A DNA stretch of 26,432 nucleotides, taken from IMG/VR virus record IMGVR_UViG_3300027573_000101, positions 1 to 26,432 of that record, one strand, 5' to 3'. This document shows, in pieces, positions 24,042-26,432 of this stretch. The notes beneath the pieces are model-generated. The model was not told the origin of the DNA, searched no databases, and saw nothing but the letters and a program-made list of their open reading frames with translations. Numbering within the stretch: the stretch's first letter is position 1; every line of letters starts with the position of its first letter. The DNA comes from a virus. Position numbers and translations under genes: made by a program.

Positions 24042-24371
24042 CTACGCTACCTTCTTAACTTCAGGCTTCGGAGGTTCTGCCTTCTTAACTATCTCGAAAT
24101 CTGCCACAGATAGAGCTCCCCCAACTCCCGCTGGGCCATCCACTAGCTTCAGAGAACCACTGGAATGAACAATTCCTACCTTGAAATCTCCTTCCCACGT
24201 CTTATCCTCTGCCTTCTTCCGCCTCACCGTATCCCCGGCCTCGATGGTCTTAGCCTTGAGCTCTGCTTTGGCCTTCTCAGCCTTAGCCTGATCTTCCTTA
24301 GCCTTCGCTTCCGCAACTTTCGCTTCTTCTGCGGCCTTCGCTTCTGCTACTTTGTCCATCTTAATCTCCAT
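24042..24371 (-). CDS. Ala/Lys/Glu-rich protein with small C-terminal domain (109 aa)
   Basis: Residues ~5-42 are an Ala/Lys/Glu-only coiled coil (heptad-like AEAKAKEDQAKAEKAKAELK). After it comes a compact beta-like part with AGDTVRRKK, GIVHSSGSLKLVDGP and ADFEIVKKAEPPKPEVKKVA, reminiscent of a small barrel. ATG 24371 overlaps the small-terminase stop (TAATG). An alternative ATG at 24359 has GGAG six bases upstream and may be the main start. No family recognised. The coil resembles the Ala/Lys/Glu tail of the gene at 16522-16857. Confidence 0.65.
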   Translation of the reverse strand: MEIKMDKVAEAKAAEEAKVAEAKAKEDQAKAEKAKAELKAKTIEAGDTVRRKKAEDKTWEGDFKVGIVHSSGSLKLVDGPAGVGGALSVADFEIVKKAEPPKPEVKKVA

Positions 24372-24832
24372 TAGTTAACTCGTTCACTACTCGGCGCATT
24401 CGCCGGTATATCCTCATTCTGCCTGGATAAAGAGGCGGGGAGCTGCCGGGGAATCGGTTCAATCACGGTCATAGTTATCATCTGAGGCATAGTCCGTGCA
24501 TCCGGAGGAGTTTCCTTCGGGTCAGCCCACACCTCAGGAGCCGCCCGCCTCAGAGCCTGCATGAGTACCTTAGACCTGACTGGATCTTCTGTGGTTAGCA
24601 CATCAGCCTCAAGCCGATACACCCGCTGAGCCATCGCGAGTTCGACATCATAGCCAAATGTGGGATGGTTATCGACCCATTGGGCCGCGACCCTATATGG
24701 GATTCCTGCTTTGCCAGCAGAGGCTCTTAGACTGAAGCCATCTTTGACTGTGTCCAAGACTATCTGGGCGATGTCCGCATTGTAGATGGCGGAGGTGCCT
24801 ACCCACTCGAGTTCGTTGCGCCGGTCCTGCAT
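24371..24832 (-). CDS. terS: Terminase small subunit-like protein (153 aa)
   Basis: I start at ATG 24832, which forms TAATG with the preceding stop. The N-terminal third has a helix-turn-helix, IVLDTVKDGFSLRASAGKAG followed by IPYRVAAQWVDNHPTFGYDV, the pattern of small terminase DNA-recognition domains. A helical oligomerisation part follows (YRLEADVLTTEDPVRSKVLM). The C-terminus is Pro-rich and disordered-looking. Small terminases bind the packaging site and hand the DNA to the large subunit. Position upstream of terL in the late operon agrees. Confidence 0.8.
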   Translation of the reverse strand: MQDRRNELEWVGTSAIYNADIAQIVLDTVKDGFSLRASAGKAGIPYRVAAQWVDNHPTFGYDVELAMAQRVYRLEADVLTTEDPVRSKVLMQALRRAAPEVWADPKETPPDARTMPQMITMTVIEPIPRQLPASLSRQNEDIPANAPSSERVN

Positions 24833-25161
24833 TATACCCCGTGAGTCCCTGACCAATAATCTATACAACTCCTTGGGCTGTGTCGAGTATTTTCCGCTGG
24901 AGTTGTATCACACAAGTTATCAATCCAATTATGAGTCTTATCTCTATCTATATGACCTATTACTTTAGGCCAGTACCCATGAACGAAAAACCAAGCTAGT
25001 CTATGTTCATAAATATTTCCAACTCGTCGATACCCATCTACATCTACATAGCCTGCTCGTTTACCTGCGCGATAACCAGTTTTATAGATAAATATTCCCT
25101 TTGTGGGATTATAGGAAAACCTTTGTTTAAGATCACCGTCCATAATATTACAGTATGGCAC
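24832..25161 (-). CDS. HNH endonuclease, apparently truncated at the C-terminus (109 aa)
   Basis: Resembles free-standing HNH homing-type nucleases (HNH_3-like). An N-terminal beta part has FSYNPTKGIFIYKTGYRAG and GYVDVDGYRRV. HRLAWFFVHGYWP contributes the first His, and VIGHIDRDKTHNWIDNLCDT the second His and Asn, with a Gly where Asp is usual before the second His. PAENTRH and SGTHGV end the protein. Relatives usually continue after SG-x-x-GV with another ~25-40 residues, so the tail is missing. The TAATG joint to terS and the position suit a nuclease that invaded the packaging cassette, or a packaging-associated HNH. Ribosome site weak. Confidence 0.7.
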   Translation of the reverse strand: MPYCNIMDGDLKQRFSYNPTKGIFIYKTGYRAGKRAGYVDVDGYRRVGNIYEHRLAWFFVHGYWPKVIGHIDRDKTHNWIDNLCDTTPAENTRHSPRSCIDYWSGTHGV

Positions 25162-25272
25162 ACTTTGGACCTGGTGACAAGGGGTGGGGGTTGTGGCAAA
25201 TTGCCGCAGACTGTCATTACGTAGCGTAAGTCTAATTTCGAGGGGCGCACGGTGGGTGTGATGAGAAGAGGC

Positions 25273-25294
25273 AGGAAAAGGAGGAGGAGGGGGG
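25273..25294. repeat. Polypurine tract (22 nt)
   Basis: The plus strand has 22 consecutive purines (25273-25294), rich in GGA/GAGG, just left of the GA-free island. The opposite strand would be a pyrimidine stretch in the late transcript. It could form triplex or other non-B structure or mark a boundary. I have no functional evidence. The remaining bases of 25162-25313 contain only a short palindrome, TTACG-TAG-CGTAA (25217-25229), and no convincing promoter. Confidence 0.5.
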
Positions 25295-25331
25295 CCTTAC
25301 GAAGTTACTTTTCTACTAGGTAGGCAACGCC

Positions 25332-25433
25332 GCCTAGCCTAGGCAACTTTACCTATATGTGCTACTAAGCCTAGGTTAGGTATACTTACCTATATAAACA
25401 AATATACCTAGCATAGGGTTAATATGCTAGGTA
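25332..25433. repeat. Array of CCTAG/TAGGTA palindromes and hairpins
   Basis: The non-coding part of the island is built of related motifs: GCCTAG-C-CTAGGC (25332-25344), the repeats TAGGCAAC (25321-25328, 25340-25347) and TTACCTATAT (25349-25358, 25386-25395), TAGGTA-TACT-TACCTA (25377-25392), and the perfect 11-bp inverted repeat TACCTAGCATA/TATGCTAGGTA (25405-25415, 25423-25433). They could be operators, iterons or RNA hairpins. No gene of plausible length lies in 25162-25487. Confidence 0.6.
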
Positions 25434-25445
25434 CAAACAGGCAAC

Positions 25446-25477
25446 AAAAATGGCCTAGGTATTGCTACCTAGGCCAT
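25446..25477 (-). terminator. Rho-independent terminator after the gene at 25488-25853
   Basis: A perfect 12-bp stem, ATGGCCTAGGTA/TACCTAGGCCAT (25450-25461 and 25466-25477), with a 4-base loop and TTTTT on its 3' side when read on the minus strand. It lies 10 bases after the stop codon, so it should separate the small upstream transcript from the late operon, which then needs its own promoter between 25162 and 25446. Confidence 0.85.
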
Positions 25478-25487
25478 GCTTTAGTTG

Positions 25488-25853
25488 CTAGGCTGCCTTG
25501 CCAGCCCGTTTAGGGGCTGCTACAGGGGCAGGCGCAGGCGCAGTAGGTAAGCTAGCTACATGCGCCGCAATGGCCTGTACGGTACCGCTAACTGGCGCAG
25601 GCGCGGGCTTGGCAGCAGGGCCAATGGTAATAAAACCATGCTTAGTGTCCCATGCCAAATCTTGCGCAGCGTAGCCTTTACCGGCAAATGCCGCATTGGC
25701 CGGGTCTAGGCATAAAGCCCTATACTGGCCCACTGTAATGCCTTGGTAATACAGGTTAAAACGCCTGTAAGCCTTATTAGGCTGCCCCTTAGCATTAAAT
25801 GGCTGCTTTGGGTTATGGCCAATGTTTACTTTTATTACTAGGTTGTTATCCAT
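25488..25853 (-). CDS. Basic, Glu-free protein in the GA-free island (121 aa)
   Basis: A 121-residue protein with ATG at 25853 and only a distant AGGGG (13 bases upstream). A normal GGAG site would contain GA, which is absent here. Residues 1-78 look like a compact mixed fold (LVIKVNIGHNPKQPF, YRRFNLYYQGITVGQYRALC). Residues 79-121 are an Ala/Pro-rich linker ending in a basic KRAGKAA. There is no Glu and there are just four Asp, giving a strongly basic protein. All Phe are TTT, Ser AGC, Gly never GGA and Arg never CGA/AGA. A terminator follows. A nucleic-acid-binding role would suit the charge but is a guess. Confidence 0.7.
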   Translation of the reverse strand: MDNNLVIKVNIGHNPKQPFNAKGQPNKAYRRFNLYYQGITVGQYRALCLDPANAAFAGKGYAAQDLAWDTKHGFITIGPAAKPAPAPVSGTVQAIAAHVASLPTAPAPAPVAAPKRAGKAA

Positions 25854-26166
25854 GGTAGGTATTTACCCCTAAATGCCAGTTGCCGTAATGGCCCCTGCGC
25901 AATGCCACAATGGCCAGGAAATGTGGCCAAAATAAGGCACACCGCTCATCTGGCCAAATTATTTTTTGTTCCTTCTTTGTTTCATGCCGCAGCGTCAGGT
26001 TCCTGCGGAACGCAGATGCCGGAGGCGGACGCGAGCGAATCAGTTCAAGGCCGTACGGATTCTTTCTACGAAGAATGGACTTGATTCTGTCTACAGATTC
26101 TGTCCGGTCTATCAGGTCCTTCGAGATTTTTTCTGCTCTTCTGATTCTGTCTGTTCTATTGATCAC
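25846..26166 (-). CDS. Doubtful basic ORF (106 aa)
   Basis: A 106-codon frame starting with GTG 26166 and overlapping the next ATG by eight bases, the coupling style of the late operon. The product is very basic and its N-terminal part is a repetitive DRI/DRTESVDRIKS pattern. That part coincides with the repeated GATTCTGTC motifs, and its C-terminal part enters the GA-poor island. No ribosome site at a proper distance (GAGG abuts the start) and no recognised domain. It may be a chance reading of repeats. Confidence 0.3.
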   Translation of the reverse strand: MINRTDRIRRAEKISKDLIDRTESVDRIKSILRRKNPYGLELIRSRPPPASAFRRNLTLRHETKKEQKIIWPDERCALFWPHFLAIVALRRGHYGNWHLGVNTYHG

Positions 26167-26263
26167 CTCGTGTGGATTACGAAGATTGACTCTATCTAAA
26201 TGACTGATATTAGGTCCGCTCGTGTGGTTTACGAAGAATCCAACAGGGGGAAATGACCGAATC
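26037..26263. other. Cluster of eight GANTC sites
   Basis: GANTC occurs at 26037, 26058, 26083, 26096, 26143, 26188, 26236 and 26259: eight in 227 bases, where roughly one is expected by chance. Three are part of a repeated GATTCTGTC (26083, 26096, 26143). Four consecutive sites are 45-48 bases apart. GANTC is the recognition sequence of CcrM-type adenine methyltransferases of Alphaproteobacteria, so the cluster may sense methylation or reflect repeat structure alone. Confidence 0.75.
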
Positions 26264-26294: not shown

Positions 26295-26323
26295 TTGACC
26301 CAGGAAATATTTAAACCTATCCT
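26295..26323 (+). promoter_or_regulatory. Second weak rightward promoter candidate
   Basis: TTGACC (26295-26300), a 17-base spacer and TATCCT (26318-26323). It points to the right, away from all genes here, so a divergent transcript may begin at this edge. The rest of 26324-26432 holds several CCTAG motifs, a tandem ACTATTT pair (26401-26414) and no gene I can support. Confidence 0.2.
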
Positions 26324-26432
26324 AGTCATTCAGACCTAGACGGGGACGGAAAATAGGTATATCAGCCTAGAATGACCCCAAACTTTACGTACCGTCACTT
26401 ACTATTTACTATTTACCATGGCGTTTTGTACT

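What the first reader, a model, noticed from the sequence alone, without database searches (positions are those of the whole stretch)
25314..25917. A 604-bp island with no GA dinucleotide
Counted base by base: zero GA and four TC on the plus strand, where about 38 of each are expected, and all four TC are unavoidable Asp codons. Non-coding hairpins and synonymous sites obey the rule as well, and the edges are abrupt. Ordinary codon bias cannot do this. One hypothesis is that the phage (or a partner) modifies or cuts DNA at GA, so that this stretch must stay free of it. Deazaguanine insertion by DpdA enzymes is known to favour GA contexts in phage CAjan. Other ideas are escape from a GA-cutting nuclease acting on DNA or RNA, or transfer from a genome with this property. 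No dpdA-type gene is in this window.
Basis: partly seen in the sequence, partly recalled or inferred. Interest (0 to 1): 0.92.

Follow-up and report, generated by a model that had tools for sequence, protein, structure and literature searches.

The report
GA-free gene cassette in a phage
A 600-base stretch of an uncultured phage holds one unknown gene and its terminators, and contains no GA or TC dinucleotide except in four unavoidable aspartate codons, which suggests that it evolved in a genome where something strongly punishes that two-base word on both DNA strands.

Summary
Window 25314-25917 has 0 GA and 4 TC, where base composition predicts about 38 of each. All four TC are the first two bases of Asp codons of a 121-aa minus-strand gene (25488-25853). 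The GA gap is 617 nt; the next longest in the window is 171. In 20,000 codon-preserving simulations of the gene the lowest GA+TC count was 17 (mean 29); the real count is 4. In 3.4 Mb of other phage and bacterial DNA the emptiest 600-nt window still holds 16. The gene also lacks Glu.

Avoidance is equal on both strands, in coding and non-coding DNA, so it is a DNA-level constraint, not codon bias or mRNA-only attack. There is no TT/AA excess, so it is not recent TC deamination. The unit is self-contained (leader, gene, tandem terminator hairpins), an orphan, and differs from the phage in composition.

Some Bacteroidota genomes avoid GA/TC genome-wide (about 45% of avoidable coding sites remain). 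One of them (MAG SZAS-55) matches the island's other statistics best, but none approaches 0%.

Best reading: a cassette acquired from an unseen replicon under near-total GA exclusion. The agent is unknown. DpdA-type modification is not supported.

The parts
25313..25946 (.). GA/TC-depleted island (maximum-scoring segment; core 25314-25917 has 0 GA and 4 TC)
25488..25853 (-). Orphan ORF, 121 aa, basic, 0 Glu, 4 Asp, 2 Ser (both AGC); Ala/Pro-rich C-terminal tail ending PKRAGKAA. No hit in PHROGs, Pfam, NCBIfam, PDB sequences, phages, plasmids, viral or genome contigs; single-sequence AlphaFold model unreliable (pLDDT 45)
25450..25477 (-). Perfect 12-bp terminator-type hairpin ATGGCCTAGGTA-GCAA-TACCTAGGCCAT followed by a T run on the minus strand, just after the stop codon (it reads as a terminator on both strands)
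25403..25435 (-). Second terminator-type hairpin, 13 bp, GA- and TC-free
25314..25402 (.). Further CTAGG-rich hairpin sequence completing the GA/TC-free non-coding tail (25300-25490 folds at -76 kcal/mol, z -5.0)
25854..25946 (-). Upstream leader of the gene: GA/TC-free to 25917, then fading; GGCCA/GCCRYAATGGCC repeats; no GA-containing Shine-Dalgarno (TTTAGGGG instead); only a weak promoter-like match (ATGAAA-16-AATAAT, 25985-25958)
25846..26166 (-). Possible upstream ORF (106 aa, GTG start) whose stop overlaps the start codon of the island gene; GA-normal outside the island; may be spurious
24832..25161 (-). HNH endonuclease gene (PF13392, phrog_99) downstream of the island; outside the GA-free zone
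24371..24868 (-). Probable terminase small subunit (phrog_1482, weak)
25201..25304 (.). GA-dense, purine-rich left flank ending TTACGAAG; the same 8-mer recurs at 26177, 26229 and 26282 in the right flank

Best explanation
The island is a self-contained, moron-like transcription unit (leader, one orphan gene, tandem terminators) that entered this podovirus-type phage, next to its packaging genes, from another replicon. In that replicon the GA/TC dinucleotide pair was purged for a long time from double-stranded DNA, coding and non-coding alike, by a process that sees both strands. Shown: the complete and strand-symmetric avoidance, its extension to amino-acid choice, the fit of its limits to one gene unit, the compositional mismatch with the phage, and the existence of bacterial genomes with a milder form of the same avoidance. 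Inferred: that the unit was imported, that the donor is more extreme than any genome seen here, and that the pressure is a sequence-specific attack on or modification of GA:TC in DNA rather than a mutational bias.
For: 0 avoidable GA/TC in gene and in non-coding DNA. Rest of the phage is normal (avoidable ratios 0.9-1.35 per gene). Amino-acid level effect: 0 Glu (P 8e-4) and 4 Asp+Glu of 121 against 11.5% in the phage (P 1e-3). The unit ends with its own strong terminators. Codon choice is unlike the phage: log-likelihood -149 under phage usage against -131 under the Bacteroidota MAG G047; -133 against -123 when GA/TC-containing codons are left out. An order-2 Markov comparison that ignores GA/TC also ranks G047 first of 31 training sets (-733 against -743 for the phage). 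Genome-wide GA/TC avoidance exists: G047, G087, G171, G195 and G254 have rho(GA) of about 0.53-0.65; avoidable GA+TC is 0.45-0.54 in coding and 0.53-0.66 in non-ORF DNA. G047 shares the island's excess of GC and TA and of CCTAGG (CCTAGGTA 176 against 13 for its reversed control; only G511, 19 against 1, had a higher ratio among genomes with more than a handful of hits).
Against: No homologue of the gene was found anywhere, so no donor is identified. The most GA-poor gene of 103 in G047 still keeps 23% of its avoidable GA/TC, so G047-type genomes fall far short of zero. The Ala/Pro-rich tail is not typical of Bacteroidota (own knowledge). G047 was found through a hairpin pattern taken from the island, so its CCTAGG richness is partly selected for. 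No related phage lacking the island at this place could be found, so insertion itself is unproven. The order-2 Markov margin over the phage, GA/TC aside, is only about 10 log units.
Confidence: 0.5

Rival explanations
1. Local constraint: this segment of the phage itself must stay free of GA, for example because the phage or a companion element encodes a GA-specific nuclease, modification or ssDNA-targeting enzyme that acts here, and the unit must remain unmodified or uncut.
For: The phage's non-structural part is missing from the window, so such an enzyme could exist. The unit lies next to the packaging genes and an HNH endonuclease gene, with TTACGAAG repeats on both sides.
Against: The same genome has normal GA everywhere else, including the adjacent flanks. 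79 terL-related contigs have no such island. CAjan and 9g, which carry deazaguanine-modification genes, have none.
Confidence: 0.2
2. Assembly chimera: the contig joins phage DNA to a fragment of a GA-avoiding organism.
For: Metagenome contig; island near the contig end; no second record confirms either junction.
Against: Both flanks carry the TTACGAAG repeat, and the right flank continues for 500 nt as GA-normal DNA, so two chimeric joins would be needed. The limits match one gene unit. The GA-free DNA would still need explaining.
Confidence: 0.12
3. Phage DNA modification of DpdA type at GA: the island is a segment that must remain unmodified.
Against: CAjan and the first 50 kb of 9g have no GA-free 600-nt window. 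GA-avoiding bacteria have no more than one TGT-family gene. No modification gene among the 30 window ORFs scanned.
Confidence: 0.07
4. Escape from an mRNA-directed GA attack such as CmdT, which ADP-ribosylates adenine in GA of single-stranded RNA.
For: CmdT specificity is exactly GA, and its authors note that Shine-Dalgarno sequences nearly always contain GA (PMC11618068). The island's leader has no GA-containing Shine-Dalgarno.
Against: The mRNA also lacks UC completely (0), which an mRNA attack would not select, and the four GA that remain are in the mRNA. A related enzyme attacking ssDNA of both strands would be compatible; CmdT itself modifies ssDNA only weakly.
Confidence: 0.05
5. Recent hypermutation by a TC-specific DNA cytosine deaminase (DddA-like), turning TC into TT.
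For: DddA targets TC in dsDNA (PMC10442228, abstract); such action would empty TC/GA symmetrically.
Against: TT/AA is not in excess: 81, against 89 expected when GA=TC=0. The reading frame is intact and Ser, Phe and Ile codons look re-chosen rather than mutated.
Confidence: 0.03

Closest known systems
Genome-wide GA/TC avoidance in some Bacteroidota (e.g. MAG SZAS-55, JAFDYM01 = G047; also G087, G171, G195), measured here
   Same: Strand-symmetric depletion of GA/TC in coding and non-coding DNA; excess of GC (G047 also of TA and CCTAGG); closest codon choice
   Different: About half of the avoidable sites remain, against none in the island; no homologue of the gene
Restriction-site avoidance in phages
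   Same: Counter-selection of a short DNA word on both strands (own knowledge)
   Different: The word is 2 bp, the avoidance is complete, and it is confined to one gene unit
Phage morons (imported single-gene transcription units)
   Same: Own terminators, foreign composition, lies between phage genes
   Different: Composition unlike any donor found; no convincing promoter identified
DpdA/7-deazaguanine phages (CAjan, 9g)
   Different: Those genomes have no GA-free islands
CmdTAC mRNA ADP-ribosyltransferase (PMC11618068)
   Same: Recognises GA dinucleotides, an anti-phage defence
   Different: Acts on ssRNA, hence not strand-symmetric; the island also lacks UC

Membership tests
Moron / imported single-gene cassette | Own transcription terminator | tested here: met
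   Perfect 12-bp hairpin followed by a T run at 25450-25477 (-) and a second hairpin
Moron / imported single-gene cassette | Own promoter | tested here: inconclusive
   One weak match (9 of 12) at 25985-25958 (-), no more than shuffles give
Moron / imported single-gene cassette | Composition foreign to the host phage | tested here: met
   GA/TC, GC/TA excess and codon choice
Moron / imported single-gene cassette | Absent from the same site in related phages | not testable with these tools
   No related contig with the terS-side region was found
DpdA-type GA modification | dpdA and preQ0 genes in the genome | tested here: inconclusive
   None among the 30 ORFs scanned, but the phage record is partial
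DpdA-type GA modification | GA-free islands in phages that carry the system | tested here: not met
   CAjan and 9g minima are 33 and 44 GA+TC per 600 nt
Escape from mRNA-level GA attack (CmdT) | GA missing from the mRNA strand only | tested here: not met
   mRNA strand has 4 GA and 0 UC
TC-deaminase hypermutation | Excess of TT/AA where TC/GA is missing | tested here: not met
   TT+AA ratio 0.91 of the constrained expectation
DNA of G047-type GA-avoiding Bacteroidota | Similar non-GA statistics and codon choice | tested here: met
   Top or joint top of the sets compared
DNA of G047-type GA-avoiding Bacteroidota | Avoidable GA/TC as low as in the island | tested here: not met
   Lowest of 103 G047 genes 0.23; island 0
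DNA of G047-type GA-avoiding Bacteroidota | Homologous gene in that clade | tested here: not met
   No convincing match in 398 genomes of the order

The most novel reading that the evidence does not exclude
There is a lineage of replicons (phage, plasmid or bacterium) whose DNA is held almost completely free of the GA/TC dinucleotide by an unknown two-base-specific process acting on both strands, and the island is a transplanted piece of it; the partial GA/TC avoidance of some Bacteroidota genomes is a weaker trace of the same process.
Probability: 0.3. Interest if true: 0.9.

Novelty: new variant of a known kind. Interest (0 to 1): 0.68.

Why it matters
Avoidance of DNA words is normally partial and concerns sites of 4-6 bp. 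Complete loss of a 2-bp word, strong enough to strip glutamate from a protein, would need an agent that sees every GA in a genome: a two-base nuclease, a base modifier, or an ADP-ribosyltransferase on single-stranded DNA. Finding the donor would point straight to that agent. The measured GA/TC avoidance of some Bacteroidota genomes makes the question testable in bacteria.

Tried and rejected
Rejected: codon bias; low complexity or repeats (in three unrelated contigs, L094, L173 and L210, GA-poor 300-nt stretches are tandem repeats or repetitive coding; the island is not); mRNA-only GA attack (strand symmetry); recent TC deamination (no TT excess); DpdA; DarT ADP-ribosyltransferase as the cause in GA-avoiding bacteria (PF14487 absent from all six GA-poor genomes tested). 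Led nowhere: searches for the protein, for the flanking repeat (chance hits), for relatives of the small terminase and HNH genes, hairpin patterns in viral contigs, Rfam, the single-sequence AlphaFold model, CTAG-rich Pseudomonadota genomes (mostly normal GA), and paper searches for GA-depleted genomes. Loci L296 and L315 were mostly N and were left out.

Full report
Observation. The GA gap is 617 nt, the second longest in the window 171 nt. The four TC are the antisense of Asp codons 2, 50, 65 and 69 of the minus-strand ORF 25488-25853. Of the ten complementary dinucleotide pairs only GA/TC is emptied in any 600-nt window (minimum 4 against a mean of 74). The best-scoring GA/TC-poor segment is 25313-25946 (score 65; best elsewhere about 5). 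The left edge is sharp; the right edge fades over some 50 nt.

More than chance. Keeping the protein and drawing synonymous codons at the phage's own frequencies gave 17 or more GA+TC in each of 20,000 simulations (mean 29; real 4, all forced). Other phage genes have avoidable GA and TC at 0.9-1.35 of expectation, the island gene at 0. In 3.4 Mb of other loci (351 loci) the emptiest 600-nt window has 16. The non-coding 240 nt obey the rule too.

Anatomy. All recognised genes run on the minus strand: an SU10-type portal, large terminase, head and tail genes, glycosyltransferase, endolysin. The island lies upstream of a probable small terminase and an HNH endonuclease gene. It holds one gene of 121 aa, then two strong terminator-type hairpins, preceded by a leader without a GA-containing Shine-Dalgarno. 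The protein has no Glu (P 8e-4), 4 Asp+Glu in all (P 1e-3), an Ala/Pro-rich basic tail, and no relative in any library or collection searched. Its fold could not be predicted (pLDDT 45).

Nature of the constraint. The coding strand has 4 GA (forced) and 0 TC, and the non-coding tail has neither, so both strands are treated alike. This excludes an mRNA-only cause, including the known GA-specific mRNA ADP-ribosyltransferase CmdT (PMC11618068). With GA and TC set to zero, maximum-entropy expectation already gives most of the GC and TA excess; TT/AA is not raised (0.91), so this is not a recent conversion of TC to TT as by DddA-like deaminases. The picture is one of long equilibrium under exclusion, reaching amino-acid choice.

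Relatives. No other copy exists in the collections scanned. 79 contigs with related large terminases have no such island; none covers the homologous region closely, and no relative of the small terminase was found. CAjan (whole) and 9g (first 50 kb), which carry deazaguanine-modification genes, have no GA-free island.

A parallel in bacteria. A scan of bacterial genomes with a hairpin pattern from the island returned 47 loci, one of which, JAFDYM010000066.1 (MAG Bacteroidetes SZAS-55), has rho(GA) 0.62 with excess GC and TA. Pattern counts over its family, order and phylum and sampled DNA show genome-wide GA/TC avoidance in several genomes of that order (rho 0.53-0.65), coding (0.45-0.54 of avoidable sites) and non-ORF (0.53-0.66), while relatives such as G050 are normal. 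Among 31 training sets the SZAS-55 genome fits the island best even when GA/TC is ignored, and it and three family members fit its codon choice best. But its most GA-poor gene keeps 23% of avoidable sites, so it is at most a model, not the donor. It was also found through an island-derived pattern, which biases the CTAGG comparison; the GA/TC depletion itself was not selected for directly, although a GA-free pattern favours GA-poor genomes. In the GA-avoiding genomes neither extra TGT/DpdA genes nor DarT explain the bias.

Conclusion. I judge an imported unit from an unseen replicon under near-total GA/TC exclusion most likely (0.5), a local constraint next (0.2), then a chimeric contig (0.12). 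The agent remains unknown; a two-base-specific attack on or modification of DNA is inferred, not shown.

Noticed in passing
G047 (L241, L264, L304-L320), G087 (L284), G171 (L291), G195 (L292), G254 (L299), G049 (L266): Genome-wide GA/TC avoidance in one order of Bacteroidota (rho GA 0.53-0.65), while family members such as G050 are normal; I found no description of it in the papers searched.
   Followed up: partly
L091 (IMGVR_UViG_3300020045_005441): Phage contig with GA/TC at 0.77 of expectation, coding-strand TC at about 0.6: a phage with mild GA/TC avoidance.
   Followed up: partly
window 25297, 26177, 26229, 26282: TTACGAAG repeat on both sides of the island, three right-hand copies spaced 52-53 nt within longer repeats (CTCGTGTGGNTTACGAAGA); possibly regulatory or packaging-related.
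   Followed up: partly
window 26083-26151: GATTCTGTC repeated three times in 70 nt, in a pyrimidine-rich stretch upstream of the island.
   Followed up: no
window 26322-26370: Three CTAG sites within 50 nt and a TAGGTATATCAGCCTA copy resembling the island's hairpins, but with normal GA/TC.
   Followed up: no
L094 1932-2240: GA-poor non-coding stretch with TAAGCA tandem repeats and an inverted repeat, possibly a replication origin; unrelated to the island.
   Followed up: partly
L222, L224, L226, L230, L231, L246, L256, L260, L262: Nine of 47 genome hits to GCCTAGGTA-N-TACCTAGGC are Desulfosporosinus, suggesting a repeated hairpin element in that genus.
   Followed up: no
window 24832-25161: HNH endonuclease gene overlapping the start of the probable small terminase gene, possibly a free-standing homing endonuclease.
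   Followed up: no
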